Numbered from the stretch's first letter, positions 16,017 through 43,234 are shown. The stretch is DNA of 64,000 nt from an uncultured Elusimicrobiales bacterium (GCA_944324675.1 CALUXE010000004.1:1-64000), one strand, 5' to 3'. Made by a program: numbers and translations. The notes: a model not told the origin generated them from the sequence alone.

Positions 16017-16760
16017 ATGAAAAATCAGAAATATGTTTTAAAAGCTTTAACAATGATCTTAGCCTTTACGGCGCTGGCAATAAGCGCGGAAGCTAAGAAG
16101 ACGGAGTTGGTAGCCGTCAGCGCCGATATCGTAGAAATTAGCGGCTCCTTGACGACCTCTAAAGGCTTTGCGTGGAACCAGCTGCTGGATTTCAGCGAGA
16201 AAGAAATTCCGGGGATATTCTCGATAGGCGAGTTTGAGAGGAAGTCTTTGCTTACCACTCGTTTAAAACTTATGGAAAATGAGGGAAAGGCGCAAATACT
16301 TTCCAACCCGAAAGTTATAGCGCGCTCCAACACCAGCGCCAACTTTTCCGCGGGCGGGCAAATACCTTATCCCGTGGTAAGCGACAGGAACGTCGGCACG
16401 GAAATGAAGGAATACGGCGTTAAATTGGACGTAATGCCCACGATTATACCGGAAAGGAACAATATAATAATAGTGCAGTTGGAAATAGAGCTTTCCAACC
16501 CGGATTATTCCAGAAGTTTGACGATTAACGGTTCCACTGTTCCTTCAATGACGAAGAGATTTTTGAGATCCGAGGTCGAGCTCAACAGCGGCGAGACTTT
16601 GGTTATAGGCGGTTTAAAGAGCAGCACCAGAAGCGTCGCGGAAGACAGAGTGCCGATACTGGGCAAAATCCCCCTTATAGGATTGCTTTTCAAGAATAAG
16701 GATATAACGGAAGAACAAAGGTCTTTATTCTTGTTCATAACGGTAGAGATCGTGGAGTAA
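16017..16760 (+). CDS. minimal Tad secretin (CpaC/RcpA-like)
   Basis: This 247-aa protein has a signal peptide (cleavage near residue 26) and then essentially only one N-domain-like segment. It ends with the secretin C-domain: KAQILSNPKVIARSNTSANFSAGGQIP, GVKLDVMPTI and the terminal VPILGKIPLIGLLFK hallmark. RcpA/CpaC proteins are normally about 450-550 aa with BON and N modules, so roughly half is missing. It could be a genuine mini-secretin, or the N-modules may be supplied by another protein. There is no sign of a frameshift upstream within the 34-base gap to cpaB. Confidence 0.82.
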   Translation: MKNQKYVLKALTMILAFTALAISAEAKKTELVAVSADIVEISGSLTTSKGFAWNQLLDFSEKEIPGIFSIGEFERKSLLTTRLKLMENEGKAQILSNPKVIARSNTSANFSAGGQIPYPVVSDRNVGTEMKEYGVKLDVMPTIIPERNNIIIVQLEIELSNPDYSRSLTINGSTVPSMTKRFLRSEVELNSGETLVIGGLKSSTRSVAEDRVPILGKIPLIGLLFKNKDITEEQRSLFLFITVEIVE

Positions 16761-28997: not shown

Positions 28998-29168
28998 ATG
29001 ATAAAGAACGCTATAAGAACGATAAGCAATAACAGAGGACAGCAGACGGTGGAGTTTTTGCTGATGCTGGGCTCGGTGATTACTTTCGTGCTGGCGTTCA
29101 TAGTGACGTTTCATAAGGAAATAGCAGGCGGTTTCTTTACCATAATAGGGAGCATATTGGGGGGCTAA
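28998..29168 (+). CDS. short Flp/TadE-like prepilin
   Basis: This 56-aa gene has a leader with NNRG followed by QQTVEFLLMLGSVITFVLAFIV, the G|Q-x-x-V-E-F class III prepilin motif with Glu at +5. Its stop codon abuts the start of the next gene (TAA then ATG). It opens a second cluster of pilin-like genes, 14 kb from the first, right behind the response regulator. Confidence 0.75.
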   Translation: MIKNAIRTISNNRGQQTVEFLLMLGSVITFVLAFIVTFHKEIAGGFFTIIGSILGG

Positions 29169-30245
29169 ATGTCGTTCGGCTTTTATTCCATAAGGAACAA
29201 AAAAGCGCAGATAGTATTGCCGGCTATATTGTTGATACCTACGATATTGCTTGTGATATATCTTTTGTTTGAAACGGCAAAACTCTCCAGGGAAAAAATT
29301 CGCCATCAATTCGCGTTGGATACGGCGGCGTTCACGGAGTTGACTTCCGCCTCGCAATACTTAAACGCTACGGCTTACGTAAACGGGGCGTTTCCGTTTA
29401 GGCTTTTTAGGGAGAATTTGGCGCCCGAAGAACCGGCATTTCCTCTTAAAGGGCAGGAAAACAAAGAACTTAGCGTGTACGAGTTGTTTTACAGGGGGGG
29501 AGCTTTCCCCGCGTTGGGCGACGCTGGAGAGTGGAACAGCGAGCCCAAGGACAGCGATACGGAGTGGGAATTGAAATTCTATACGGAAGAATCCCCGGAG
29601 CGTTCCTCTTGGAACAGCGCGTCGCCGCCCAATGTTGACGAAGGTGCCTTTTACCCGATAATGTCTAAGCAATACGCGGACGAATACGCTATCGGCTGGA
29701 ATCCTGACGCCGTGAAGTTATATGTTTTGATATATTACTTTTTGAGCCAAATATACGAAGACCAAAAGAACGTTTATCTGCGTTTGAGCAAAGAAGGAGA
29801 GTTTTTCCGCAAGGGGTATTATCTGAACGCGGGGGACTGCAAGATGAGCGAATGCGGGCGGGAAGGCGCCAAAGTTTTTAAGAGTTATATAGCCGATACG
29901 GAACCCGTATACATAAAGAAAATAAAATTCTATTTTGTTGACCCCGGGGACGGCACATCAGAGGCCATGGAGATACCCTTCGATTTGGAAGAAGAAGATA
30001 TGTTCGACGGCAAATTGTTTCAGTACGCTTATGTCGGCCGCGGTTATATGGGCAAGCTAAAGCGTCTGTATAAGGGTTTGGACATAACGCAGTCTTTCAG
30101 GGCTCCGAGTAATTATTTTAATGTGGATTTGAACAAATTTAATCCGCGCAATCACGTTAAGGTGGCGCTGCAATGCACTAAGGAGGATAACAACTGCGTG
30201 TGGCCCAATCCTACGCCTAAGTATCAAGTGAGGATATTCCCGTGA
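29169..30245 (+). CDS. large pseudopilin-like protein (TadG/TadE position)
   Basis: This 358-aa protein has an N-terminal basic stretch and then KKAQIVLPAILLIPTILLVIYLLFE, a TadE/TadG-like hydrophobic segment, followed by a long extracytoplasmic domain. The prepilin motif is degenerate (A instead of G before Q, no E at +5), so it may stay anchored rather than be cleaved. The domain contains three cysteines in pairs near CKMSEC and CTKEDNNC. No family was recognised beyond the segment. It overlaps the next gene by four bases (GTGA). Confidence 0.65.
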   Translation: MSFGFYSIRNKKAQIVLPAILLIPTILLVIYLLFETAKLSREKIRHQFALDTAAFTELTSASQYLNATAYVNGAFPFRLFRENLAPEEPAFPLKGQENKELSVYELFYRGGAFPALGDAGEWNSEPKDSDTEWELKFYTEESPERSSWNSASPPNVDEGAFYPIMSKQYADEYAIGWNPDAVKLYVLIYYFLSQIYEDQKNVYLRLSKEGEFFRKGYYLNAGDCKMSECGREGAKVFKSYIADTEPVYIKKIKFYFVDPGDGTSEAMEIPFDLEEEDMFDGKLFQYAYVGRGYMGKLKRLYKGLDITQSFRAPSNYFNVDLNKFNPRNHVKVALQCTKEDNNCVWPNPTPKYQVRIFP

Positions 30246-30796
30246 GAATATTTGACAGGATAAGAAACAGAAAGGGACAGGCGACTACGGAAGTGGTATT
30301 GTTGTTTCCGATATTTTTTATATTGACTTTATTTATCATTAAGATATACGGCTTGCTGATAATAGTGCAGAAGACGGAGATAGCCTCTTTTTACGCGGCT
30401 CGGCGCTGGCAGCTTGAGAGCCACCGCGCGATAAAATATGCGGATGGCTGGGATAATATATTTTTGAAGAAGGACATTGAAAAGAAAGTAAAGGATTATA
30501 TCGGATTTAATAACGCGGCGATGCGAAAATTTTTATCTTTAAAGAGCGTGGAATTGGAAGTGGAACGCACGAATGTATGGAATAACGTCACTTTAAAGGT
30601 TAGCACTTATCCCCCCAATATCCCGTTTTTATGTTCCTACGACATCAGGCAAGTATGCAAGAAGCCTTACGGCTTGGCTTGTGAGCGCGGTTATAATTTT
30701 ATATGCAAACGCGGCGGTTCGATAGAAGTAATAAAGAGGGTCCCCAACAGGGACAGGCCGATATCCTTTAGATTGCCGATGTCAAATCCGAACTGA
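30242..30796 (+). CDS. TadE-like pseudopilin
   Basis: This 184-aa protein has a leader ending RNRKG, then QATTEVVLLFPIFFILTLFII, the TadE-family motif with Glu at +5. Its C-terminal domain contains four cysteines (CSYDIRQVC, ACERGYNFIC). Start is GTG at 30242, coupled to the upstream gene by a GTGA overlap. It closes the pilin-like triplet before the first RNA-leader gene. Confidence 0.78.
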   Translation: MRIFDRIRNRKGQATTEVVLLFPIFFILTLFIIKIYGLLIIVQKTEIASFYAARRWQLESHRAIKYADGWDNIFLKKDIEKKVKDYIGFNNAAMRKFLSLKSVELEVERTNVWNNVTLKVSTYPPNIPFLCSYDIRQVCKKPYGLACERGYNFICKRGGSIEVIKRVPNRDRPISFRLPMSNPN

Positions 30797-30816: not shown

Positions 30817-30845
30817 TTGACAAATATGAGGTTTGATTGTAAACT
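30817..30845 (+). promoter_or_regulatory. sigma70-type promoter P1 of the unknown-protein cluster
   Basis: TTGACA (30817-30822), a 17-base spacer and TAAACT (30840-30845). The spacer closely resembles that of the promoter at 32395. Start of transcription is expected near 30852, directly before the conserved leader. Confidence 0.75.
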
Positions 30846-30852
30846 TATGGTA

Positions 30853-30926
30853 GGTACGTTTGTACTATAAAGAGCTCCGTGTTTGAGGGTGTGGATTCGG
30901 AAAACGCCGCGCCGGTCATCAGGGGC
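30853..30926 (+). ncRNA. candidate structured cis-regulatory RNA leader, copy 1
   Basis: A hairpin GGTAC/GTACT (30853-30857/30862-30866) is followed by ATAAAGA. An outer stem GCTCC/GGGGC (30874-30878/30922-30926) encloses the conserved strands GTGTTTGAG (30879-30887) and CGGTCATCA (30913-30921). These flank an apical stem GTGTGG/CCGCGC (30889-30894/30907-30912). A T-run follows at 30931-30936. The same architecture recurs at 32431-32506 with a different apical stem sequence, which supports a conserved fold. I do not recognise it as a known riboswitch class. Confidence 0.6.
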
Positions 30927-30968
30927 AAGATTTTTTGTATAAGAATTTAAATTTTAGAGGATAAGAAT

Positions 30969-32300
30969 ATGGCGGTAGTATTAAAGAGCAAGAACGGCGG
31001 AGTGAAGAAAAGTCCCGTAAGCGCTTGGCTGGGGTACGGAGCGGTGGCGGTATTTGGTTTGGCGATAATATCTACGGCTTTTATGGGCGGCGGGAAAGCG
31101 CCGGATCCTATGGATTCGGCATATAGCTATTCCGATTTTAAAGATTTGGCGGATATGCCGTTTTCCAACGAGGAGGCCGAAGCGCAGCTCTTATCAAGCG
31201 TAAGGTACGGCGACATAGCTAAGAACGATTTGATAAACGCTTTGTTCTCGGAAGAGAGTAAAGCCGAGCGGCAAGCGGAGGACGCGTTAAACGGCGTGCC
31301 TGAGCCGCCGGACGAGGAATATGCCGAAGCGGCAAAAGAGAAAGAGAAGATAAGAAGCGCTAAGGAGCTCTATCGGCGCAGCAGAGAGGCCGCAAAGAAC
31401 GCCGTGGCTCAGAGAACCTCTAAAGGCTCTTTAAGTTCTTCCAGCGTGGCGCGCGCCACGGGCGGGGGGAGCGGGGTCAGCGCGACTCTTTGGCGGGCCG
31501 ATGATAAGAACAACCAATCTTCCGGGGCGGCGAGTGTAAACGGCAGGGGCGGCGGCTCGCTAAGCAATCAGTTGGCGCAGGAATTGAAGAAAAGCGGGCG
31601 CGGCGGCGGATTTATGTCGGCTTATGATAAGAGCCGCGCGGCGGCCAACGTTCAGGATTTGGAAGCGGCTCACGCTTTGGCGGCGGACGCTTTCCAGAAC
31701 TCGGGCGATTTGGAGGGCGATTTAAAAGGCGATTTGGAAGATATGGCCGCGGAGCTGGATTTAAATAAAGCCATTGGGGCCATAGACAAAGAAAAGGGAG
31801 TGGCGAACACCTTGGACGATAAACTTTCCAAAGCTAAGGACAAAGCAGACAAAAAGACTAATAGGGAATATAAATGCGACGGCTCTATGCTGAACGGCAA
31901 GATAAACGCCGGCTGTATTGCGGGAGAGTTTATGAATGCCCTTTTGGATATGGGTACGCGGGCTTTGTCCTCTTTGTTTCAGGGAAGCAACGGGGAGTTG
32001 AGCCCCATGGAGCAAGCCAATAAGAACTCTAAGATAGAAGAACTTAATCAACAAATAGCGGAATTGGAATCCAGAGGCAATTTGGGAATTTATGATAGAA
32101 CCTTGTTAAACCAGTTAAAAAGGGATAGCGCCTATCTCAATACTAACGGGGTAGAGGGTTTTAGTAAAGATTATATGAAAAACCGGAGTGACAATCTTAA
32201 CAGAGCTAAGCAGCAGGAAGAGGCAGCCGCCCGGCGAAGGAGTTCTAACCACGACTCATGGCAGACTCCTCGTTGGGATGATTTGTTGGATTTGCCTTAG
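30969..32300 (+). CDS. unknown membrane-anchored Gly/Ser/Ala-rich protein A
   Basis: This 443-aa protein has one transmembrane helix (about 20-39). Residues 58-118 match protein B (32549) closely, including DIAKNDLIN and ERQAEDALNGVP-type blocks (here AERQAEDALNGVP). Then come basic helical and low-complexity Gly/Ser segments, a lysine/aspartate-rich stretch, a cysteine pair near residue 300-317 and a charged C-terminus. No known domain was recognised. It is preceded by its own promoter and RNA leader, and follows pilin-like genes. It is probably an envelope protein with an N-terminal anchor. Confidence 0.7.
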   Translation: MAVVLKSKNGGVKKSPVSAWLGYGAVAVFGLAIISTAFMGGGKAPDPMDSAYSYSDFKDLADMPFSNEEAEAQLLSSVRYGDIAKNDLINALFSEESKAERQAEDALNGVPEPPDEEYAEAAKEKEKIRSAKELYRRSREAAKNAVAQRTSKGSLSSSSVARATGGGSGVSATLWRADDKNNQSSGAASVNGRGGGSLSNQLAQELKKSGRGGGFMSAYDKSRAAANVQDLEAAHALAADAFQNSGDLEGDLKGDLEDMAAELDLNKAIGAIDKEKGVANTLDDKLSKAKDKADKKTNREYKCDGSMLNGKINAGCIAGEFMNALLDMGTRALSSLFQGSNGELSPMEQANKNSKIEELNQQIAELESRGNLGIYDRTLLNQLKRDSAYLNTNGVEGFSKDYMKNRSDNLNRAKQQEEAAARRRSSNHDSWQTPRWDDLLDLP

Positions 32301-32394
32301 TAACGTTCTAAGATCCATGATTAAGGCTTTTCAAACCTATAAGAGGGCGTTCGCATTTTTGACGGGAAGCGGTTGAAATATATTGTTTACGCCA

Positions 32395-32423
32395 TTGACA
32401 AATTAGAGGTTTATTGGTAGACT
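32395..32423 (+). promoter_or_regulatory. sigma70-type promoter P2 of the unknown-protein cluster
   Basis: TTGACA (32395-32400), a 17-base spacer and TAGACT (32418-32423), with sequence similarity to the 30817 promoter in the spacer and downstream. Start is expected near 32430. Confidence 0.75.
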
Positions 32424-32430
32424 TTAGATA

Positions 32431-32506
32431 GGTACCGGGTGTACCAATAAAATAGCTCCGTGTTTGAGGATATTCCGGCGGTAATGGGGTATCGGTCATC
32501 AGGGGC
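32431..32506 (+). ncRNA. candidate structured cis-regulatory RNA leader, copy 2
   Basis: A hairpin GGTAC/GTACC (32431-32435/32441-32445) comes first. The outer stem GCTCC/GGGGC (32455-32459/32502-32506) encloses conserved strands GTGTTTGAG (32460-32468) and CGGTCATCA (32493-32501). The apical stem is ATATTCC/GGGGTAT (32470-32476/32486-32492). An alternative stem CCGGC/GCCGG (32475-32479/32505-32509) followed by TTTTATT could act as a terminator, so switching between two folds is conceivable. Confidence 0.6.
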
Positions 32507-32548
32507 CGGTTTTATTGTATAGATGGTTTATATTTTAAGAGGTAAAGC

Positions 32549-33568
32549 ATGTCTATAATTATCAGGAGCGCCGGAGTTAAGAGAGGCGGCGAAAAGAACC
32601 AAATATATACATGGGCGGCATGTATAATGGTATTGGTTTTTGCCGTTTCTATAGGCGTTGCCGTAAAAAGCGCCGACAAACAGAGCCCGTCGGAAGCCGC
32701 CTATCGGAGGCAAGCCTTTGATTTGGGCAATATGCCGTTTGACGACGACAGCGCCGAGGCGTATTTGCTGGCCTCAAACAAATATAACGATATAGCGAAG
32801 AACGATTTGATAAACGGACTGTTTTCCCCGACTCAGAAACAAGAGCGTCAAGCGGAAGATGCCTTGAACGGTGTTCCTCTCCCGCCGGACGACGATTACA
32901 AAGCCGCTCAGGAAGAAAAGGCGGCAAAGAAAATAAGGGCAGATTTGGCCGATAAAAGGAAGAAAGAGGCCCGCGCCAAGATTTCCGGCTTGGCGACTTC
33001 AAAAGGGACTTTGAATAGAGGCTCCATGGCGAGCGTATCCGGCGGCGGGGGGGGAAGCAGGGGTACGCTTTCCAATGTCGGGGCAGGTTCGGCGAATGTC
33101 CGGCCAGGTTCAAAGATGAGTCAAACGCAGGCCGCTTTGATAAGCCAGGTAAAAGGTGGCAGGGCGATGGGTTTTCAGCATGCGGCGATGGCCAGCGCGC
33201 AAGCGGCCAATAGCGGTAATTTGGAGGCCGCGGCGGGCGGTTCGGTAGATGCTTTCCAAAAGGGAAATACGGATGCCGGCAAAGAATTTTTGGAAAGCGA
33301 TTTGGAAAAAGATTCAAGCGCGTTGAATATTGATGAAGAAGATCTTAAGGATAAACTGGAGCGCGCGGGCACCAGCGAGGAACTGGAGGGATTGGACGCC
33401 AAGCTGGAGGATTTAAAGAAAAAGAAAGAAGACGAAGAAGAAACCTGCGACAGCAGCATGTGGAATAATCTTACCAACGGTAAAGGGGAATGTTTTTGGA
33501 GCGATGTAATTGATAAAGCTATCGGCGCTATGATAGGCAATTTTATCGGCGGGATATTCAAGGCATAA
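32549..33568 (+). CDS. unknown membrane-anchored Gly/Ser/Ala-rich protein B, paralogue of A
   Basis: This 339-aa protein has one transmembrane helix (about 21-40). Residues 58-117 are homologous to protein A (KYNDIAKNDLING, QERQAEDALNGVP, PPDDDY). A Gly/Ser-rich middle and an acidic/lysine coiled segment (about 245-300) follow, then a cysteine pair and a C-terminal hydrophobic helix (AIGAMIGNFIGGIF). The paralogy extends into the promoter and RNA leader, so the whole unit was duplicated. It is shorter than A at the C-terminus. Function unknown. Confidence 0.7.
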   Translation: MSIIIRSAGVKRGGEKNQIYTWAACIMVLVFAVSIGVAVKSADKQSPSEAAYRRQAFDLGNMPFDDDSAEAYLLASNKYNDIAKNDLINGLFSPTQKQERQAEDALNGVPLPPDDDYKAAQEEKAAKKIRADLADKRKKEARAKISGLATSKGTLNRGSMASVSGGGGGSRGTLSNVGAGSANVRPGSKMSQTQAALISQVKGGRAMGFQHAAMASAQAANSGNLEAAAGGSVDAFQKGNTDAGKEFLESDLEKDSSALNIDEEDLKDKLERAGTSEELEGLDAKLEDLKKKKEDEEETCDSSMWNNLTNGKGECFWSDVIDKAIGAMIGNFIGGIFKA

Positions 33569-33587
33569 CTAAAAAAGGAGTCTTAAT

Positions 33588-35063
33588 ATGAAAACCATAT
33601 TAAATAAAATAGGAGCGGTGTCAAAGCCCGTAATATTCGGAGCGGCGTTGGGAGTTGCCACCGTTGCGGTTGGTATAGGAGTGGCTACCAACTTGATGAG
33701 TGACGGGCCTAAAGGAGTATCGGGGCGCGTATTGGGGCAATACAGCGCGGATAGCGCTTCGGTAGGCTCAGGCGGCGGATACGACGCTTTTTCCAAGGAG
33801 GCTTTAGAGCAGCAAATGGCTGCGGCTCAAGCCGCGCGGGAAGGCGGTACGGCTTTGGATTATTTGGGCGCTGCCGGCAGAAACAGATTTGCTTACGGCG
33901 ATAACGCCGGTTCATATGAAGGGGGAGTGGTAGACCCTATGGCCATGAACAATGCCGCTTATGAAGGAGTGGAAAGCGGAGCCAATGCCGGTATGCCTTC
34001 GGATGTGAAGGCCGCGATGAATCAATTTAACGCTACGGCGGCCGCGGTAAGCTCCCAAGCGGGCAAAGGCGGAACGGAAGAATACGGCACCCGGCTTAAC
34101 AAACTGAGCAGAAGCAATATGTCGGGCGGCGCTTCCGCTTCGGGCGGTTTTGGGGGCGGCGGCTCTCACAATATGGGGGCTATTATGGGGGCGGCGGCGG
34201 CTTCCGATAAGGCGGCCCTCCAGACGGTTCCCTCGGTAAATATGGGAGATAGGCCTGAGGGTAATATAAGCGGCGTCGCCGGAGCGAAACACGGGCGTTT
34301 GGGCGCCATGGGCGGCAACAATTCAAGAGGGGCTACTGGCGGCAACGGCGGCAGCGGCCAAGCTTATTTTACCAGCACGATAGGGGAATTGGTATCCGCG
34401 CAGAAATATTCCGCTTTAGGCAAAGGAACCGTATACGGCGATGCGGAAAAAGGTTTTGTTGAGGCTTCGGCTGCTTTTGACGGCAGCGGCGACGCGGGGG
34501 AAGGGGTCCAAATAACGGGCAGTACTCCTATGATAGACAAGGCGGCGGCTCTTGATAGAGAAGCTACAAAAATAAACAACAAGAACAACACCGGCGGGAT
34601 AGACACGAACGTAACGCCGGACGTGGAGTCTTTTAGCAAAGCTCGAAAGGAATTAATGTTGGCGACTATCGCCATGCTCGGGACCATGTTGGCTATAGCT
34701 ACGGCAATATCCTTTATTAAGGGGACGGACGTTTGGAGTTGGATTGCCAAGGCGGCATTGCTCGCCGCGGGTATAGTGGCCGTTTGGGCTATTTACGGCG
34801 CTTGGATGCTTAAGAACATACAACTCTTGCAGGATAATAGCCAATATATCAAAAACGGCGCGGGCATATGGCCTTGGTTGGCGCCGACTATTGCCGGTAT
34901 AGCTACGGCCGTGATGGGTATTGCCATGGTTGGCAAGGTGTCGGAAGGGATTCGGAATTTTGTTAAGAATATTGGTAAAAACTTTACTGAGAGGATCAAA
35001 AAATTCGCGAGTTTGTTTCAAGCGCCTGCGAAACCCCCAACCCCACCTACTAAACTGGTTTAA
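33588..35063 (+). CDS. unknown multi-pass, Gly/Ala-rich membrane protein
   Basis: This 491-aa protein has an N-terminal transmembrane helix (about 13-35) and a long Gly/Ala/Ser/Asn-rich region (about 45-310) with GRLGAMGG and a following QKYSALGKG segment. Three C-terminal transmembrane helices (about 355-380, 383-405, 425-447) lie before a basic, proline-rich tail. The GRLGA[MF]GG phrase and the QKY segment recur in the 35670 protein. It starts 20 bases behind protein B with an AAAAAGGAG site. The multi-pass end makes it a candidate membrane base for this set. Confidence 0.68.
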   Translation: MKTILNKIGAVSKPVIFGAALGVATVAVGIGVATNLMSDGPKGVSGRVLGQYSADSASVGSGGGYDAFSKEALEQQMAAAQAAREGGTALDYLGAAGRNRFAYGDNAGSYEGGVVDPMAMNNAAYEGVESGANAGMPSDVKAAMNQFNATAAAVSSQAGKGGTEEYGTRLNKLSRSNMSGGASASGGFGGGGSHNMGAIMGAAAASDKAALQTVPSVNMGDRPEGNISGVAGAKHGRLGAMGGNNSRGATGGNGGSGQAYFTSTIGELVSAQKYSALGKGTVYGDAEKGFVEASAAFDGSGDAGEGVQITGSTPMIDKAAALDREATKINNKNNTGGIDTNVTPDVESFSKARKELMLATIAMLGTMLAIATAISFIKGTDVWSWIAKAALLAAGIVAVWAIYGAWMLKNIQLLQDNSQYIKNGAGIWPWLAPTIAGIATAVMGIAMVGKVSEGIRNFVKNIGKNFTERIKKFASLFQAPAKPPTPPTKLV

Positions 35064-35115
35064 GTTGGGATAGGAATATATTCATTAGTTAAAGAAGCGG
35101 TTTAAAGGGGTTGTT

Positions 35116-35619
35116 ATGAAAGATGAAATTATGGGAATATTGGTTATTTTTGGCATTTTGTTTATCTCTTGGACTATTTGCTTTTTTGTGCAAGACATAA
35201 TGATAAACAGAGACATTAAGGAAATTAAAGCCAACTATGAAGCCGAATTAAGGGAACAAGGCCTTTTGCCCAAGAAAGAAAGTCCCCGTTCCAGGACGGA
35301 TATATATATTCCTGTAGACAGGACTGGGCAAGCCAACAGGCAAGACAGTACGGCGATGTTCTTAAAGTCAGCGCAGGACGCTTTCGGCTCCAAGGAGCAA
35401 GGCGGGCTGCAGACTGTCGACTACGGTTCCCAGGTTGACGAATATCGGCAGAAAGTTAATGCCGTTAAGAGGGCTGAAGCTCAAAAGCTGCAGCGGCAGA
35501 GGGCGCAGCAAGAGTCTCTGAGCGGAGGTGCCAACAGATCTTCGCGGCCTCAAGGCGGGGCTGCGGGTTCGGACGGCTCAACCACGAGAATTAACAAATT
35601 GAGGACTTCCAGCCTATAA
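35116..35619 (+). CDS. small membrane-anchored coiled protein of the unknown cluster
   Basis: This 167-aa protein has an N-terminal transmembrane helix (about 6-28) and a charged linker. A segment FLKSAQDAFGSKE faintly resembles the AQDSYADSK stretch of the 37354 protein. A basic/glutamine-rich helix (about 110-137) and a Ser/Gly-rich tail follow. No recognised domain. It lies between two larger family members in the same direction. Confidence 0.62.
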   Translation: MKDEIMGILVIFGILFISWTICFFVQDIMINRDIKEIKANYEAELREQGLLPKKESPRSRTDIYIPVDRTGQANRQDSTAMFLKSAQDAFGSKEQGGLQTVDYGSQVDEYRQKVNAVKRAEAQKLQRQRAQQESLSGGANRSSRPQGGAAGSDGSTTRINKLRTSSL

Positions 35620-35669
35620 AGTTTTAAAGGCGGTAAAATTCAAAGGCCGCCGGGAAAAAGGGTAATGGT

Positions 35670-37202
35670 ATGAAAAACAAAAACATAGTCAGAGACAGAA
35701 ACAAGAAACCTCCTTTCTATAAAAATAAGAAGGGGGTATTGGCGGTGATTTTGTTGCTTTTGCTGTTCTTTCTTACGGTAATAACTATGCCTATGTCGGA
35801 AATACCTTTGCTCGGCCGCATGGGGGTAATGTTTGGGCTTACCGATGAATCCATGCGGGCTTTGACCTTGTCCGATTTCGCGGCGTATACATTCGGGATA
35901 GAGGGCGGCGGCCGTTTGGCCTCAGTACGAAACGGACAATATTCCGTATATGAGAGCAGTGGGGGCCTTTCCCCGTTCGCCCTGCAGAGTTCCAACCGTC
36001 TTTTGGACGCGCAAGAGGCTTACAGAAAGGAATTTGAGAAGATGGGCAGATATAGCGCCATAGCGGGATCGGCCTCGGGATTGAATTTGGAAGATCCGGA
36101 AGGCATCGTCTATCAGATGGGAATGAACGGGGTAAGCCCGTATATCGATGGGGAGACTGGGGCCGCGGCGGCGGACGCATACGGACAGCCTTTTGTTAAA
36201 CCTTTTGACGAGATGGCTTTGGAACAAGCCTACGCGGGCAGTTATGGCGGCAAGCGGGACGGCAAGGGGAATATTATCTTATCGGGCAGCGATAAGACGA
36301 AGATTTTGAAGCCGTCGGACTTGGGGGAAATAAAATCCGCCAGAAGCGACGAGAACAGCATGTATTTTCAATCTTTGGATAAACAAAGCAAGAAATTGCA
36401 TGGCGGCCGTTTGGGAGCGTTTGGCGGCATAAACGCAATGACCAGCAGAATAAGAACAAGCGTTTCTTCCGGGCGGCAAATGGGAGCCTTTGGCTTTTCC
36501 GGCCGACAGATGGGGCGCGTATATTATTTGAGCGCCACCGCTAAGAGCCAAAAATACAATGATGTCGCGAAGAATGTCGTAGAAGCCGCGTGGGACGGCG
36601 GAGAGATAGAGGAAGAGGATTTGTTGGCCGTAGGAGAGGAAACCGAAAAAACGGTAGACTCTTTGGAACCGCCTTCTACGATAATAGGCAAAGCGACGAG
36701 AGCCATGGATGCGTGTGCGGCGGCGCGCGTAGCTTACAATCAGGCTTTAAACGAAACGGGCGCGGCTTATAGGGAGCTGGAAGCCCTGATGCTGCAAGCG
36801 GGTATAGACTCGGGGTCCAATACGGGAGTGCCGGGATCTTGCAGCGCGAATTGGCCTAAAGGCTCAGCTCTGTCGAAAGCCAAACGCCAAGAATGGAATT
36901 CGTATATAGAGGCGATGAAAACGACTTGTAATGAGCTTCGCAATATCGGCGGGGATTATGCGGGGCAATGCGGGCTTAACTATGAAACCACGGTGTCTTG
37001 CGGCAAACTTGACGAAGCTAAGGCGAAAGGAAAGACTTGGGGCGGGAATGTCTGGACTTTGTTGACCGAGTTTAAGAAGTGCAAGAATAATTCCATAGAC
37101 ACCAACGGCAAGAGTTTGAAGTTGGATAGGGTCAATAGCATACTCGAAGACGTCCGCAAAGGCGCGGGCTTAGACGGGACGGTAACGGAAGATTTCTTTT
37201 AA
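35670..37202 (+). CDS. unknown membrane-anchored protein with Y-x-D-V-A-K element
   Basis: This 510-aa protein has a transmembrane helix (about 22-40) and a long soluble region with repeated GR[LQ]GAFG-type phrases (246-275). SQKYNDVAKNVVEAAW (293-308) matches the element of proteins A and B. The C-terminal helical domain carries five cysteines (about 345-470). No known domain was recognised. It belongs to the same co-directional group, and a fresh promoter follows it at 37257. Confidence 0.68.
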   Translation: MKNKNIVRDRNKKPPFYKNKKGVLAVILLLLLFFLTVITMPMSEIPLLGRMGVMFGLTDESMRALTLSDFAAYTFGIEGGGRLASVRNGQYSVYESSGGLSPFALQSSNRLLDAQEAYRKEFEKMGRYSAIAGSASGLNLEDPEGIVYQMGMNGVSPYIDGETGAAAADAYGQPFVKPFDEMALEQAYAGSYGGKRDGKGNIILSGSDKTKILKPSDLGEIKSARSDENSMYFQSLDKQSKKLHGGRLGAFGGINAMTSRIRTSVSSGRQMGAFGFSGRQMGRVYYLSATAKSQKYNDVAKNVVEAAWDGGEIEEEDLLAVGEETEKTVDSLEPPSTIIGKATRAMDACAAARVAYNQALNETGAAYRELEALMLQAGIDSGSNTGVPGSCSANWPKGSALSKAKRQEWNSYIEAMKTTCNELRNIGGDYAGQCGLNYETTVSCGKLDEAKAKGKTWGGNVWTLLTEFKKCKNNSIDTNGKSLKLDRVNSILEDVRKGAGLDGTVTEDFF

Positions 37203-37256
37203 ATAGACGGATTGTAAAGCGGCGGACGGGGCGCTATTTATTACATTAAAAACAAG

Positions 37257-37285
37257 TTGACAGGGGTATTAAATTGTAGTGTAAT
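37257..37285 (+). promoter_or_regulatory. sigma70-type promoter P3 before the 1285-aa protein
   Basis: TTGACA (37257-37262), a 17-base spacer and TGTAAT (37280-37285). The 5' leader of about 60 bases lacks the conserved RNA element seen at the two upstream promoters, and ends with AGAGGAGG before the ATG at 37354. Confidence 0.7.
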
Positions 37286-37353
37286 GGTGGAAAGCGAGTC
37301 GGGCCAGATAGATTTGCAGTTGCTGTAAAGAATAAATGTAAAGAGGAGGCACT

Positions 37354-40300
37354 ATGCCAAATAAGGATAGCTTTACGTTTAGCGATAAGTTAAAGAAGAG
37401 TAAATCTCTTCCATTATCCAAACGTATTCCCTCCCGTGTAGGAGGAGACGGCAAAGCCAAGCGGACTTTAATTCAAAGAGCCCAAAGGGATTTGCCATTT
37501 ATAATAGTGGCCGTAGCGGCTTTATTGCTGCTGCCATTATTGAGCCGCCACGGCGGCACTGACGGGGCCGGTTTTGAAGGCTCGGGTTACGACGATTTTG
37601 TAGGGCAATCCCTGTATGACTATCCGTCTTCCGGCGACGGTGAAATCGTCCCCAGCACGGGCTATAGAGATCCTATGGACTACATTATAACCAATCGCAG
37701 CGGAATGGATACTCCCAGCTTAAGCGATAGCTATGATTCCGAGGATCCCTCCTTATACATATCGCGTGCGCAGGATTCTTATGCGGACTCCAAACCTCAA
37801 AGAGAGATATATAAGGATGTGGCAAAGCCCGGCATTCGAAACGCGGTACAGCGCAAAGCTACGGCGATAGGGGCGTTTAGGAACCGCGCGATGAGTTTCG
37901 GCGGATCCACTTCCGGCTTGAGCCGCAACCTGGCGATAGGCGGCGCTCCCACGACTGCGGGCGCGGCCGCGGCCAGAGTCGGCGTAAGGCCTGTAGCCTT
38001 GCAGCCTCTGACTTCAGGCGGCAAAGGCAGGGTGCTTACCGGCGAGGGTTTATATGCCGAGGCTGCCCGTTCTTTAGGCGCTTTGAACCAAGGTTCGGCC
38101 AAACAGGCTTTGTTTGAAGCTCAGCTTCGCGATGTCGACGGCACCCCTTTAGGCGCGCCCGGCGACTCGAGAAGGGCCGCCGCCAGAATAGGCTCTCAGG
38201 GCAGGGTCCCCGACCACAAGTTTGGATACACCAATGAACGTCCTTGGTGGTGGGATATGATGAATGAGCGTTCCCAGAAGATGTGGGAGCTTTGGAATTA
38301 CAACTGGCAGAAAGCTTTATCCGATTCGCTGATAAAAGTATCCACCAACTTGGCGATGTGTCTTTTGACGGGTTCTCAAGACGGTTCCGTAGAGAAATTT
38401 TTGGGCGTCAAAGGCGGGTCTAAGGATATATGCTGTCTTGTCGACGGCAAAGAAATTTGCGCCGGCGACATTGGCGATTATACGTCTTCCACCAGCGGGT
38501 CGGGCGACAGTAAAGAAACGACTAATAATTCCTTCTCGTCCATACAAGCTTTTTGCGAGTCGCACGAATCCAAAGTATATGTTTCCGAATCCGGGGCTAA
38601 GAACTTCTTGCAGGCCAGGCTCGAGTGTATGGGCTTGAAAGCGGGAAAAATGGCTTGGGCTTCAGGCACTAACTATGCGGCTTCTTGCGCGAACGTAAAT
38701 AAAACCCCCATGGTGTATAAAGCAAGCGCGAGGCGTAAAGCCGACGGCAAAGTAAGAAGCGGAAAACAGGAAAAGGTTGTGGTATACGTTAAAGCCAAAC
38801 CTAGAGACAAAAGCGTCGATACCGGCACTAAAGACAACGAGTTCGTTATAGCCTTGGAAAAAACTAATGAATTCACTTTAAGCCAATCACAGCTTGAGGC
38901 TATTAACAAAAACTGCGAGATTACAAGAGTAGGTTCTTTCGCGGCCAAGAACTCAAAAAGAAAAATCGGCAAGAAAGTCGGCCAGTATAACGACCTTAAC
39001 GATGACTCGGATTCCAAGAAGGTTAAGGAGGACGACGACGCGATAGAAAAGAGAATCGCCGAACTTGAAAGCGAATTGAGAAGAACAAATAACGAGAAAG
39101 AGCGAACGGAATTGAACCGCGAGTTGACTCTATTAAAAAAAGGGAGATATACACCTGAAGCCGAAAGCGAAAACGCCGAAGAAGAAGAGAATAACGAAAC
39201 GGAAGCAATGATAAACTCTTATGTAAGAGGCCAGGTGGCCGCGCAGTATAACTATTGTACGGGCGGCAATACCAAACCGGCGAAATTCATTGATGAAGAC
39301 GACATCATGAAAGACCTCAGGGTAAAGGCTGAAATAAATGATGTCTGCCCGATATGGTATTCCGAAGGTACGATAAATGATCGCACCGTTAACGGCCTAA
39401 CCTGCAATACTCAGCAGAGCGGGGTTGACTTTGTTGAAATAGACAAATTGTCCAGGTCTACTTTCTCGGTTACCGTTAATAATCCTAAAGACTACATCTA
39501 CGCGATATTCTTGGAAGAGGTTCAGAGCGCGCAAGACCAGAACGGCAAGTCGGGCGTTATCGTCAAGCATTATGTAAAAGATACGGCGGAAGAAACGTCC
39601 TCCGGCAATGATATGGTCCATTCCAATGTAACGATGGGCGAAGATGGCAGAATAACTTCGGCGACCTATACCGTACCTTATTACAGAGCGGGCAAAGCTC
39701 CGGAGAGTACTCAGAGCAATACGGTAGGCTCCGTACCCGGCAACGGTAAAGTGTTCTGGTTGATGACCAATAAGGAAACGCCGATCGTAAAGGCAGGGCA
39801 CGTATTTGAGGGGAAAGTCCTTTCCGAGATAAATGCGGAAGATCTTATCGGCCCTACGGCCGGCCATAAAGAGGGAGAATGCTTCTACTCGTGGGGTTGC
39901 AACGGATCGGAATGCCCGGATAAGGCTCCTATTGCGACATTATGCAAAGATGGCGAGAAGATCTATAGAGCCTCAAAGTATAACGATTATTACTTTAAGC
40001 ATAATACCACGCCAATGACTGAGCAAGAAATTAATGATTATGCTAAGAGTCATGCGGAATATGATATAGGGGCTTTTAAGAATAAATTACCGTCGTGTAA
40101 TTCCATATGTAAACATAAAGAAGGCGTATATGGCATATTGGGAGGAACTGACGAAGAAAAGGCCCTACAACTAGAACTAGATTCTTCCATAGTGGCGCAG
40201 GAAATCTTGAACAATTGCCCTTCCTGCAATCCGCAGGAAGACAATTCAACCCCCGAAGAAGCAGCCCTTGCTCGTAACGACGAGAACAACTATGAGCATG

Positions 40301-41211
40301 ACAGGTATTTTAATAGTAAGTTAGATTTGGGCAACTGCGAATTTACTATTAACTCCCAATTTGCCGTGAATCGTTTCATGGTATTTAAGAATGATTCCAA
40401 GGTAAAGGCCGAAATCGCCGGCAAATTTAGCAATCATGAGATGATAAAGTGTTTGACTAGAATAGGCGGCGTTACCCTAAATATTGAGGGATCTGCCAGT
40501 GCAAGCGGCGATGATCCGAGCAAAAACCAGGCCCTCTCTGAAGCTAGGGCAACAAGAGTAGCGGAAGAGATAATTGTCTTTATGAAGCAGCATATAAATT
40601 TAAAAAATCTTAGAATCTGCTATAAATATAATGATGGTTATGGCACAAAAGAGGGCTGGACTACCGACGAGACGGCTGGCGGAGAGAATGCAAGCGGACA
40701 CGATCTGGAAACCGAATCCGAAAAGGCTTATCTTGAAGGATTTAAGAAGGCACATCCCGAAGGTAATTGTGTTCAAACGAATGATGAGATTTACTTTGCG
40801 GACCAGGAGATGCAGAGGCAGGAATTGGTAGGGAAAGTGAGGGAGGTGCAATTAACCACCGCAGTCAAGAAGTTTATAGACTCTAAAAATAATTCGGGAA
40901 CGGAGTATTATGAATGCGTGAGAAGATCAACTCCTCAGGATATAAGAGCATGCATTGACAGAGCAACCGAAAAAGATGCGAAGAATATTCCCGACACTTG
41001 GACAGAAGAAGATAAGGCAAGTTATGAAGAATATAATCAGGCTTTAAACACCCTGAAATATTTTATAAATGCTACTTATCTTCCCGCTCTGGAAAGGATA
41101 TCTTATCTTGAGATATACATTCAAGGGAAAGGGGTTGATTCCCGTTCTAAGGGGGCGGAAGAAGAATATCAATCCATAAAGGGTTGGGTTACTGTACCCT
41201 CTAAACAATAA
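37354..41211 (+). CDS. giant membrane-anchored protein with possible OmpA-like C-terminal domain
   Basis: This 1285-aa protein has a basic N-terminus, a transmembrane helix (about 48-63) and a disordered region. YKDVAK (153-158) is followed by an AIGAF phrase related to its neighbours. Then comes a long cysteine-containing region with a coiled charged segment (about 560-620). Near residue 1045, VTLNIEGSASASGDDPSKNQALSEARATRVAE resembles the core of OmpA-like peptidoglycan-binding domains (G-x-A-S...N-x-x-L-S-x-x-R-A). If so, this could fix the assembly to the cell wall. The family's closing NRRVE motif is not clear. Terminator at 41235-41277. Confidence 0.65.
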   Translation: MPNKDSFTFSDKLKKSKSLPLSKRIPSRVGGDGKAKRTLIQRAQRDLPFIIVAVAALLLLPLLSRHGGTDGAGFEGSGYDDFVGQSLYDYPSSGDGEIVPSTGYRDPMDYIITNRSGMDTPSLSDSYDSEDPSLYISRAQDSYADSKPQREIYKDVAKPGIRNAVQRKATAIGAFRNRAMSFGGSTSGLSRNLAIGGAPTTAGAAAARVGVRPVALQPLTSGGKGRVLTGEGLYAEAARSLGALNQGSAKQALFEAQLRDVDGTPLGAPGDSRRAAARIGSQGRVPDHKFGYTNERPWWWDMMNERSQKMWELWNYNWQKALSDSLIKVSTNLAMCLLTGSQDGSVEKFLGVKGGSKDICCLVDGKEICAGDIGDYTSSTSGSGDSKETTNNSFSSIQAFCESHESKVYVSESGAKNFLQARLECMGLKAGKMAWASGTNYAASCANVNKTPMVYKASARRKADGKVRSGKQEKVVVYVKAKPRDKSVDTGTKDNEFVIALEKTNEFTLSQSQLEAINKNCEITRVGSFAAKNSKRKIGKKVGQYNDLNDDSDSKKVKEDDDAIEKRIAELESELRRTNNEKERTELNRELTLLKKGRYTPEAESENAEEEENNETEAMINSYVRGQVAAQYNYCTGGNTKPAKFIDEDDIMKDLRVKAEINDVCPIWYSEGTINDRTVNGLTCNTQQSGVDFVEIDKLSRSTFSVTVNNPKDYIYAIFLEEVQSAQDQNGKSGVIVKHYVKDTAEETSSGNDMVHSNVTMGEDGRITSATYTVPYYRAGKAPESTQSNTVGSVPGNGKVFWLMTNKETPIVKAGHVFEGKVLSEINAEDLIGPTAGHKEGECFYSWGCNGSECPDKAPIATLCKDGEKIYRASKYNDYYFKHNTTPMTEQEINDYAKSHAEYDIGAFKNKLPSCNSICKHKEGVYGILGGTDEEKALQLELDSSIVAQEILNNCPSCNPQEDNSTPEEAALARNDENNYEHDRYFNSKLDLGNCEFTINSQFAVNRFMVFKNDSKVKAEIAGKFSNHEMIKCLTRIGGVTLNIEGSASASGDDPSKNQALSEARATRVAEEIIVFMKQHINLKNLRICYKYNDGYGTKEGWTTDETAGGENASGHDLETESEKAYLEGFKKAHPEGNCVQTNDEIYFADQEMQRQELVGKVREVQLTTAVKKFIDSKNNSGTEYYECVRRSTPQDIRACIDRATEKDAKNIPDTWTEEDKASYEEYNQALNTLKYFINATYLPALERISYLEIYIQGKGVDSRSKGAEEEYQSIKGWVTVPSKQ

Positions 41212-41234: not shown

Positions 41235-41277
41235 AAATCGGCTCTGTTTTTAATTACAGAGCCGATTTGTTATTTTT
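41235..41277 (+). terminator. intrinsic terminator ending the unknown-protein cluster
   Basis: A perfect 13-bp stem (41235-41247 with 41256-41268) has an 8-base loop and is followed by GTTATTTTT. Confidence 0.9.
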
Positions 41278-41356: not shown

Positions 41357-43234
41357 ATGTTTAAGGCGCGTGAGTGTAAGATATATATACTGCTTTTTGC
41401 CCTGGCTTTCGCCGCGGGGCAGCTCAACGCCGCATTGCCCAAATTCTTGGGCGGCAGCGGTATCGGCGTAAGCGGAAACAAGGCCAATTTGGAGGGCAAA
41501 TATCCCACTTTTTGGGATAATCTGATGATAAATCAATCCTATACCAATATGTATCAGGGCATAAGGGAGTTGAGCGTATCAAAATATAAAGAGGCTTCCC
41601 AGTCTTTTGCGAAGGCGGTAATAAAAAATCCCGATGATCCTTACCCCCATATATTTTTGGGCGCCGCTCTTTATTGGCAGGGGCAGGTGGACCAGGCGAT
41701 GTCGGAATATCGCGCGGCTTTAGAACTAGACCCGGAAAATGCGCACGCGCACCAGCTTATGGGCATAGCTTACGCTTGGAAGGGCGACATTAATTCAGCC
41801 TTGGAAAGTTTTAAAAAGACCGTCGAGATTGATCCCGACCGCCCCGACAGCCAGATGAATTTGGGCTCCACTTACGCCGCCTTGGGCAATTACGACGAAG
41901 CTCTTTTCCACTTCCGCAACGCCGTGCGCTTGGATAAAAACCACCCTTTGTACCACTATCAGCTTGGCTCGCTCTACGAGGTTATGGGGCGGGATAATTT
42001 GGCTGAGGACTCTTTTAAAAAAGCTTTGCGCCTTTACCCGAATTATGAAGAAGCCCTGCTCGCTTTGGCCGTGCTTGGCGAGAAGCAGGGCTCCTCTACC
42101 AAGGCCGAACTGAATTACAGAAAAGCGCTCAAAATAAAACCGGGCGACAGCGTGGCGCGTTTTCGTCTGGCCAATTTATTGGCGCGCGAAAACAGAAAAG
42201 ACGAAGCGGTGGAATTTATCAGCCGCGCCTTTTTGATATCGCCGCTTTCCGATGAGGGGTTGGCTCTTTCCCTTTCCTATTCCGGCGGGAATGAAGGGGC
42301 GGGGAATTCTTCAGCCTCGGCGGGCGATTCAAACGGGGGGCCAAATGCAGACTCTTTAAAATCCGATGGCGCGGCGCAATCTCTTGCGGAGAATTCCAAA
42401 GCCAATTTGCCCAATACCGCTGCCGATTTAAAAATGCCGCCGCCCGATAAACAGCTCGATAGCTTCAAAAAACGGCTTGAACGCATACCCGCCGATAAAC
42501 CGCTTAATATAGATTTGGAAATTCAGCTTGAGCCTAAACTAAAACCCTCGGATTTATTTGACGCGCCCCCCGAAGAAGGCGGCGTGCCGATAGCTCCGCC
42601 ATCAATGCTGCAAGCCTCTTGGGAGGCGGCCGACAATCAGGCTTTGACGCGCTCGTTCAGCCGTTCCTTCGCTCTTAGGCCATCTGCCGAGGAAGAACGC
42701 AAAGAGTATATAGAAAGGATTTTTAACGGCCTTAACGACGTATTGAACAACGCTTCCAAAGAGTATGACGTAAAAATGTCTATACGCGGCGGCGCGGCGG
42801 TAAACGACAGCTCTACGCTGAGAAATCAATCCAAATCCAATTCCAAGGCGGCGTATAATCCGTATATGGTGGGTAATGATATGGGGCTTTGGGTCGCGGG
42901 CAAAGGCTGGGTTAAATACGTAAAAGAAGTCGGGCCGGAAGTTGCCGCCAGATTAAGCGGGGGCGACGGACGCGATTATATGATAGCAGGCCTTTCCGCT
43001 TTAACTTTGGGTGAAGGCAAAGAAGCCTTGCTCTCTTTTACTCAAGCCTATGACACCGCTGAAAAAGAGGGGAATAAAACCCTTATGGAAATGGCACTTT
43101 TGGGAAGAGGAACGGCCTATATAATACTCGGCGGGGAAGATGAAGCTCTTAAAGAGTATGAAGCCGTCTTAAAACTTAACCCCGAAAATAAAATAGCTTT
43201 GGAAAATAAAAATATATTGTTGAGCGAAAAATAA
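41357..43234 (+). CDS. exported TPR-repeat protein
   Basis: This 625-aa protein has a signal peptide (cleavage near residue 25, LNAALP) and at least eight consecutive TPR units (about 60-290), several with the full consensus such as DPENAHAHQLMGIAYAWKGD. A low-complexity linker, an unassigned central region and a final TPR close the protein (NPENKIALENKN). Two bases separate it from rsmA, so they share a transcript. It is probably a periplasmic scaffold; the specific role is unknown. Confidence 0.8.
   Translation: MFKARECKIYILLFALAFAAGQLNAALPKFLGGSGIGVSGNKANLEGKYPTFWDNLMINQSYTNMYQGIRELSVSKYKEASQSFAKAVIKNPDDPYPHIFLGAALYWQGQVDQAMSEYRAALELDPENAHAHQLMGIAYAWKGDINSALESFKKTVEIDPDRPDSQMNLGSTYAALGNYDEALFHFRNAVRLDKNHPLYHYQLGSLYEVMGRDNLAEDSFKKALRLYPNYEEALLALAVLGEKQGSSTKAELNYRKALKIKPGDSVARFRLANLLARENRKDEAVEFISRAFLISPLSDEGLALSLSYSGGNEGAGNSSASAGDSNGGPNADSLKSDGAAQSLAENSKANLPNTAADLKMPPPDKQLDSFKKRLERIPADKPLNIDLEIQLEPKLKPSDLFDAPPEEGGVPIAPPSMLQASWEAADNQALTRSFSRSFALRPSAEEERKEYIERIFNGLNDVLNNASKEYDVKMSIRGGAAVNDSSTLRNQSKSNSKAAYNPYMVGNDMGLWVAGKGWVKYVKEVGPEVAARLSGGDGRDYMIAGLSALTLGEGKEALLSFTQAYDTAEKEGNKTLMEMALLGRGTAYIILGGEDEALKEYEAVLKLNPENKIALENKNILLSEK

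What the first reader, a model, noticed from the sequence alone, without database searches (positions are those of the whole stretch)
30969..41211. Undescribed family of membrane-anchored proteins sharing a Y-x-D-[IV]-A-K element
Five co-directional proteins (30969, 32549, 33588, 35670, 37354) each have an N-terminal anchor and Gly/Ala/Ser-rich regions. They share a short element: RYGDIAKN, KYNDIAKN, KYSALGKG (weak), KYNDVAKN and YKDVAKPG. It is usually preceded by a small hydrophobic/serine stretch, and 33588 and 35670 also share GRLGA[MF]GG. A sixth, 35116, has the same anchor-plus-tail plan. They follow Tad pilin genes and end in one terminator. I know of no family with this plan. A cell-envelope assembly, with the element as a docking motif, is the strongest candidate here for a new system.
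Basis: partly seen in the sequence, partly recalled or inferred. Interest (0 to 1): 0.85.

Follow-up and report, generated by a model that had tools for sequence, protein, structure and literature searches.

The report
Conserved Tad-linked envelope gene cluster
These six genes belong to an undescribed set of membrane-anchored envelope proteins found throughout one order of Elusimicrobia bacteria, often beside their Tad pilus genes and headed by a new structured RNA in the mRNA leader, but the short YxDIAK motif that drew attention is not what unites them.

Summary
Six co-directional, membrane-anchored ORFs with Gly/Ala/Ser-rich regions follow a TadG/TadE-like pair and end at one terminator. 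They form five classes: A (30969 and 32549, paralogues), B (33588), C (35116), D (35670) and E (37354). Pfam and NCBIfam give only sub-threshold hits. The Y-x-D-[IV]-A-K element is not the shared feature: orthologues keep it in 9/26 A, 0/31 B, 4/17 D and 1/13 E. What is conserved is the cluster A-(B,C)n-D-E, in two families of the order. A third family, outside the order, has B, D, E and an A-position gene right after tadG-tadE. D carries six conserved cysteines. E ends in an OmpA-like region. A different short element (TxI[GN]xL) recurs in A, B, C and E. In the sister family the cluster lies away from Tad, and in E. minutum the genes are dispersed yet kept. Function remains inferred.

The parts
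28998..29168 (+). Flp-type pilin-like ORF, 56 aa (NNRGQ/QTVEFLLMLGSV)
   Evidence: sequence read directly; immediately upstream of the TadG-like gene
29169..30245 (+). TadG-like pseudopilin gene
   Evidence: N-terminal pilin-like segment; syntenic with TadE in all three families; no Pfam hit
30242..30796 (+). TadE-like pseudopilin gene
   Evidence: Pfam TadE E=0.001, 19.6 bits, just below cut-off
30817..30845 (+). sigma-70-like promoter TTGACA-17-TAAACT before A1
   Evidence: same arrangement in orthologues
30870..30940 (+). R1 leader RNA, copy 1
   Evidence: 69.3 bits; consensus structure and covariation
30969..32300 (+). class A protein, paralogue 1 (443 aa)
   Evidence: profile A4
32395..32423 (+). 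sigma-70-like promoter TTGACA-17-TAGACT before A2
32451..32520 (+). R1 leader RNA, copy 2
   Evidence: 69.3 bits
32549..33568 (+). class A protein, paralogue 2 (339 aa)
33588..35063 (+). class B protein (491 aa): N-terminal anchor, Gly/Ala/Ser-rich middle, C-terminal membrane segments
   Evidence: alignment A3; hydropathy
34089..34121 (+). shared element in B (TRLNKLSRSNM)
   Evidence: matrix trained on A and E, shuffle P 0.005
35116..35619 (+). class C protein (167 aa): anchor plus coiled-coil-like tail
35584..35616 (+). shared element at the extreme C-terminus of C (TRINKLRTSSL)
   Evidence: held-out test, 0 of 500 shuffles
35670..37202 (+). class D protein (510 aa), six conserved cysteines, the most widely detected member
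37354..41211 (+). class E protein (1285 aa), conserved cytoplasmic tail and anchor, large Cys-rich periplasmic region
   Evidence: alignment A1
37861..37893 (+). shared element in E (TAIGAFRNRAM)
40399..40680 (+). OmpA-like region of E (residues 1016-1109)
   Evidence: NCBIfam YiaD/OmpA E=0.015; Pfam OmpA in 3 of 13 orthologues, best E=0.0039, and in the E. minutum copy E=0.0038; all below cut-offs
41235..41268 (+). terminator-like hairpin (13 bp) after E
41357..43234 (+). TPR protein, frequent downstream neighbour of E, then ksgA; possible extra component
   Evidence: follows the cluster in L065, L067, L069, L071 and follows relocated D in E. minutum

Best explanation
The six ORFs encode subunits (classes A, B, C, D, E) of one inner-membrane-anchored envelope complex associated with the Tad pilus machine of class Elusimicrobia. 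Shown: conserved gene order across three families, retention as a set when dispersed, N-terminal anchors, six conserved cysteines in D, and an R1 leader RNA on nearly all A genes detected in the window's family and on E in the two g2 genomes where E has moved. Supported but weak: the OmpA-like region in E and the short element shared by A, B, C and E. Inferred: each subunit has a short cytoplasmic tail, one anchor and a flexible Gly/Ser-rich periplasmic tether. The subunits come together in the periplasm through short elements and disulfide-bonded helical parts. E holds the assembly to the cell wall through its OmpA-like end. Together they brace the Tad platform and pseudopilins, doing work that the short (247 aa) secretin of this locus cannot. 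R1 sets expression of the set, most likely as a protein-bound or attenuating leader.
For: Gene order: A-(B,C)n-D-E in the window's genus and in genus g6; A-B-B-D-E in eight sister-family loci from five genera, one cut at the start of the stretch read; TadG, TadE, an A-position ORF, B-type ORFs, D, E in three genomes of a family outside the order. D is found in 121 of 295 phylum genomes, nearly all genomes of the order plus five in that third family. Retention when dispersed: E. minutum keeps A+B, D and E at three loci and Tad at a fourth. Tad link: cluster directly after tadG-tadE in loci of the window's genus, g4, g5 and g6; Tad in 42 of 42 genomes. Disulfides: six conserved Cys columns in D (16-17 of 17), five positions kept when the sister family is added; a DsbA-like gene at 24345, syntenic in relatives. 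OmpA-like region of E. Shared element: held-out C proteins score at P 0-0.004 in six of eleven. R1: 77 of 80 A genes; 77 of 80 strong hits before A, 2 before E; covariation score 0.547 against 0.229 shuffled, collapsing when slid. Secretin: PF00263 at 86-247 of 247 aa.
Against: No structure or solved homologue supports the fold: predicted models are poor (mean pLDDT 51 and 53) and no Foldseek hit reaches E 0.001. OmpA hits are all below curated cut-offs. In the sister family and part of the window's genus the cluster is away from Tad, and E. minutum has it dispersed. Profile similarity between classes is weak (A-B E=1.8e-4 and A-E E=4.7e-4, both under 50% probability) and composition bias is high. 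The shared element was found by eye before it was tested, and is not detected in some C proteins, most g6 B proteins or class D. No expression, interaction or localisation data exist here.
Confidence: 0.48

Rival explanations
1. A-E form an envelope complex that is independent of Tad (for example a wall-tethering, shape or transport assembly); its place beside tadG-tadE is historical.
For: In the sister family the cluster sits beside dnaX-recR-like, murC-like or other genes, not Tad. In part of the window's genus, in g2 and in G024 it is elsewhere. It is kept in nearly every genome of the order, including small 1.1-1.5 Mb ones.
Against: Adjacency to tadG-tadE recurs in two separate lineages of the class. 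Every one of 42 genomes tested has Tad, so the two have not been seen apart; but since Tad is universal in the sample this test has little power.
Confidence: 0.3
2. Some of these proteins, E above all, are surface-exposed or secreted adhesin-like cargo of the Tad machine rather than machine parts.
For: E diverges very fast after its N-terminal third. Foldseek gives weak beta-sandwich and adhesin-repeat resemblances (best E 0.0016, nothing below 0.001). Low-complexity Gly/Ser regions.
Against: Strongly conserved N-terminal cytoplasmic tail and anchor in E and anchors in all classes; no signal-peptidase or prepilin site was recognised by eye; the OmpA-like end suggests the periplasm.
Confidence: 0.1
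3. The similarity among the ORFs is mostly compositional (Gly/Ala/Ser-rich) and they are unrelated genes that happen to be neighbours.
For: High bias scores in cross-class HMM hits; weak profile-profile probabilities.
Against: Conserved gene order across families and retention after dispersal do not depend on composition; D has conserved cysteines; the A family is recognised at up to E 1e-132.
Confidence: 0.05
4. R1 is only an intrinsic terminator or attenuator hairpin and not a regulator with a partner.
For: A U-rich run follows the hairpin in the aligned copies; in the 32451 copy an alternative terminator-like stem exists (32491-32510).
Against: Unpaired bases of the internal loops are nearly invariant (UU opposite one base; G opposite GG) in 30 sequences while the outer and inner stems covary. 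The U run starts 3-5 nt after the stem, which is poor for termination (inference). The alternative stem was not found in the other window copy.
Confidence: 0.3

Closest known systems
Tad (Flp) pilus accessory and platform genes (RcpB/CpaD, TadD, TadE/F/G)
   Same: Located with tadG/tadE-like, CpaB (RcpC), CpaE-CpaF fusion, TadB and TadC genes; membrane-anchored, envelope-facing.
   Different: No sequence match to any Tad accessory family above cut-off in Pfam or NCBIfam; several Gly/Ser-rich anchored subunits and an OmpA-like one are not part of Tad models known to me. Tad systems in Elusimicrobia were reported in PMC6668835; the passages read there name no such genes.
OmpA-like wall-anchored inner-membrane proteins (MotB, TssL-type)
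   Same: E has an N-terminal anchor and an OmpA-like C-terminal region.
   Different: OmpA hits are below cut-offs; E is far larger and Cys-rich; the rest has no similarity found. The comparison with MotB and TssL is from memory.
Autoregulatory or attenuator mRNA leaders (compared as a kind, for R1)
   Same: A short structured element in the 5' leader, usually one or two per genome, upstream of one operon.
   Different: No Rfam 15 family matches, even at E<=5, beyond what looks like chance; family-restricted; binding partner unknown.

Membership tests
Tad pilus machine components | Encoded in or next to a Tad locus | tested here: inconclusive
   Adjacent to tadG-tadE in several genera of f1 and in f8, not in the sister-family loci examined, part of g1, or g2
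Tad pilus machine components | Homology to a known Tad component (RcpB, TadD, TadF and so on) | tested here: not met
   No Pfam or NCBIfam match above cut-off for 30969-41211
Tad pilus machine components | Needed for pilus assembly | not testable with these tools
   needs gene removal
OmpA_C peptidoglycan-binding proteins (class E) | Match above the OmpA family cut-off | tested here: not met
   Pfam OmpA best E 0.0039 in 3 of 13 members; 18 bits against 27.2 in the E. minutum copy
OmpA_C peptidoglycan-binding proteins (class E) | Conserved motif resembling hhxhxGxxx..N..LS..RA | tested here: inconclusive
   Read by eye in the window copy (LNIEGSASASGD...NQALSEARATRV) and some orthologues; the model shows strand-helix-strand there at low confidence
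   9/26 A, 0/31 B, 4/17 D, 1/13 E
Any Rfam family (R1 RNA) | Score above a gathering threshold | tested here: not met
   none at gathering in the window beyond RNase P and a tRNA; best hits around R1 have E 0.67 and 4.5, far below gathering scores
Structured cis-regulatory RNA | Compensatory base changes supporting one fold | tested here: met
   17 pairs, 9 with changes on both sides, 96.3% of cells paired; score 0.547 against 0.229 shuffled and at most 0.184 when slid
Structured cis-regulatory RNA | Shown to change expression of the downstream gene | not testable with these tools
   needs reporter or in vitro transcription assays

The most novel reading that the evidence does not exclude
A-E are a new kind of envelope-spanning assembly of class Elusimicrobia, built from several anchored, disulfide-bonded subunits tethered to the wall, and its expression is governed by a new RNA element (R1) that responds to the state of that assembly and can stay with its genes when the operon breaks up.
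Probability: 0.15. Interest if true: 0.85.

Novelty: new variant of a known kind. Interest (0 to 1): 0.62.

Why it matters
The cluster is kept in nearly every sampled genome of an order that includes very small gut genomes, yet no curated Pfam or NCBIfam family names any member. If it belongs to Tad, it would show how a machine with a short secretin crosses a diderm envelope, and would give Tad a new accessory set. The R1 RNA gives an independent handle: its near-complete restriction to A (and relocated E) genes makes it a marker of this regulon and a testable regulator in a little-studied phylum with a cultivable member.

Tried and rejected
YxDIAK as the uniting motif: rejected by orthologue counts. 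Homology of A's N-terminal element with D's element: the best A-D profile alignment joins only the anchors. AlphaFold models of D (17 rows) and of E residues 284-1285 (6 rows): low confidence; Foldseek gave only insignificant matches; a PDB sequence profile search with E gave nothing. Known riboswitch or leader for R1: no Rfam match. R1 in the sister family: one weak hit (24.6 bits, G052) that is not at the cluster, treated as chance. GspL similarity of 35116 (NCBIfam E=0.002, 17 of 65 bits): treated as anchor plus coiled-coil noise. LAT, DUF630 and capsid-type hits on 30969, 35670 and 37354: far below cut-offs, ignored. Literature: few papers on Elusimicrobia with Tad, pili or riboswitches, and none listed appeared to describe this.

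Full report
WHAT IS THERE. The window lies in a 1.4 Mb genome of the family Elusimicrobiaceae or close to it. A TadB search named relatives as Elusimicrobiales and Elusimicrobium. The relative G018 is a single contig of 1,643,562 bp, the size I recall for E. minutum Pei191; that name rests on memory. A Tad locus runs from a TadE-like ORF (14661) through CpaB/RcpC (15224), a short secretin (16017, 247 aa, PF00263 at 86-247), a CpaE-CpaF fusion (16765), TadB (18997), TadC (20605) and a TPR protein (21508). After a DsbA-like gene (24345) and regulators come a 56-aa Flp-type ORF (28998), a TadG-like ORF (29169) and a TadE-like ORF (30242). The six ORFs of the finding follow, then a terminator-like hairpin at 41235-41268, a TPR protein (41357) and ksgA (43237).

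FIVE CLASSES. Iterated HMM searches over relatives sort the six ORFs into A (30969, 32549), B (33588), C (35116), D (35670) and E (37354). All have one hydrophobic anchor near the N-terminus; B has three more segments near the C-terminus. D has six cysteine columns kept in 16-17 of 17 sequences; in an alignment that adds the sister family, E. minutum and g5, five cysteine positions are invariant or nearly so. E has an almost unvarying cytoplasmic tail and anchor, then diverges quickly. Its end looks OmpA-like: NCBIfam YiaD/OmpA E=0.015 on the window copy, Pfam OmpA in 3 of 13 orthologues (best 0.0039) and in the E. minutum copy (0.0038). All of these are below curated cut-offs.

THE MOTIF. Y.D[IV]AK is far above shuffles in classes A and D but is lost outside the closest species and never occurs in B. 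In E it is peculiar to the window copy. It is not a family motif. A different element, T-x-[IVL]-[GN]-x-[LF]-x3-[SGA]-[MLV], precedes the Gly-rich stretch in A and E, in many B proteins, and ends several C proteins. A matrix trained on A and E only finds it in held-out C proteins of the window's genus (window C: 0 of 500 shuffles reach its score; 6 of 11 C proteins at P<=0.004) and not in neighbouring Tad genes. It is not detected in D, in the remaining C proteins or in most g6 B proteins. In g5 and two sister-family genomes an [ILM]PR[LM] element takes a similar place in several cluster proteins (4 of 8, 3 of 6, 2 of 6; at most 1 of 500 shuffles as high), but in a third (G052) it is absent. 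I found these patterns by eye before testing them, so only the held-out results count as tests. Profile comparisons give weak support for A-B (E=1.8e-4) and A-E (4.7e-4) similarity over the linker and a following helix, and weaker for B-D (0.005).

HOW WIDE. A is found in 82 of 295 phylum genomes, 75 of them in the window's family. D is found in 121 of 295: nearly all genomes of both families of the order and five genomes of family f8, outside the order but in the same class. In eight sister-family loci from five genera the order A-B-B-D-E is intact (L155 starts inside A), usually with a further anchored Gly/Ala-rich ORF upstream. In three f8 genomes TadG, TadE, an FtsH-like ORF (clear in one), an A-position ORF, several B-type ORFs, D and E follow one another; the A-position ORF was not matched to A by profile. 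In the window's family the cluster follows tadG-tadE in loci of the window's genus, g4, g5 and g6 (g5 classes assigned by eye and by the D profile). It is elsewhere in other species of the window's genus, in g2 and in G024. Two separate lineages sharing the position makes Tad linkage probably ancestral; this is inference from synteny, not a tree test.

RETENTION WHEN BROKEN UP. In G018 A+B lie at 711.5 kb, D at 772.7 kb (followed by the TPR protein and ksgA), E at 646.3 kb and TadB at 1301 kb. In G014 and G002 E alone has moved. The set is still complete, which supports functional linkage beyond operon neighbourhood.

THE LEADER RNA. Both A genes of the window follow a TTGACA-17-TA(A/G)ACT promoter and a hairpin with conserved internal loops. 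An alignment of 30 leaders from genera g1, g2, g4 and g6 gives one fold: outer stem RCUCY/RGAGY with compensatory G-C to A-U and C-G to U-A changes, invariant UGA/UCA, a variable inner stem, and near-invariant unpaired bases. 96.3% of cells pair; the covariation score is 0.547 against 0.229 shuffled and at most 0.184 when slid. A covariance model finds 83 hits in 74 of 295 phylum genomes, 80 of them strong (at least 42 bits) in 73 genomes. Of these, 77 lie 11-723 nt upstream of the A match, 2 upstream of relocated E genes in the two g2 genomes G018 and G023, and one at a contig edge; 77 of 80 A genes have it. The 30 training copies match by construction, so the test is the rest and the E copies. 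G014, G002 and G011, where E is also apart, have only one R1. Rfam 15 has no match. A U-rich run 3-5 nt after the stem may or may not terminate transcription. Because most genomes have one or two copies upstream of one operon, I favour autogenous or attenuation control over a metabolite riboswitch; this is inference.

FUNCTION. The gene order, anchors, cysteines, DsbA-like neighbour and OmpA-like end together favour an inner-membrane-anchored periplasmic assembly fixed to the wall. The Tad link, plus a secretin with only about 85 residues before its Secretin domain, suggests the assembly spans or braces the Tad machine. An independent envelope complex is the main rival. Structure prediction did not help: both models were poor and structure searches found nothing significant.

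NOVELTY. No described family was found above cut-off in Pfam or NCBIfam, and no paper found in the open library describes the cluster or R1; subscription literature was not searched. I class it as a new variant of a known kind (an undescribed accessory set of Tad-bearing envelopes) rather than categorically new, because its function is still inferred.

Noticed in passing
window 4836-8842 and 9179-13185: A 4,007-bp block is repeated exactly in tandem, giving two nearly identical ~1370-aa proteins that differ only at the signal-peptide end. Recent duplication or an assembly artefact.
   Followed up: partly
window 16017-16760: The Tad secretin is only 247 aa, with the Secretin domain at 86-247; ORFs of similar length sit at the same place in sister-family loci (240 aa in L044, L058, L059). 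Typical secretins are much longer (from memory).
   Followed up: partly
window 30870-30940 and 32451-32520: The R1 leader RNA, not in Rfam 15, before each family-A gene; in the two g2 genomes also before relocated E.
   Followed up: yes
L088:3826-5436, L148:1115-2839: An FtsH-like AAA protease ORF directly after tadE in a sister-family genome and in family f8, in f8 between tadE and the cluster.
   Followed up: no
L084:15427-16749, L086:10089-11339, L087:14080-15507: In three sister-family genomes one anchored Gly/Ala-rich ORF stays right after tadE while A-E lies elsewhere; it weakly resembles the ORF upstream of A (E=0.001, high bias).
   Followed up: partly
window 41357-43234: A TPR protein and ksgA follow the cluster in several species and follow relocated D in E. 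minutum; it may be another component.
   Followed up: no
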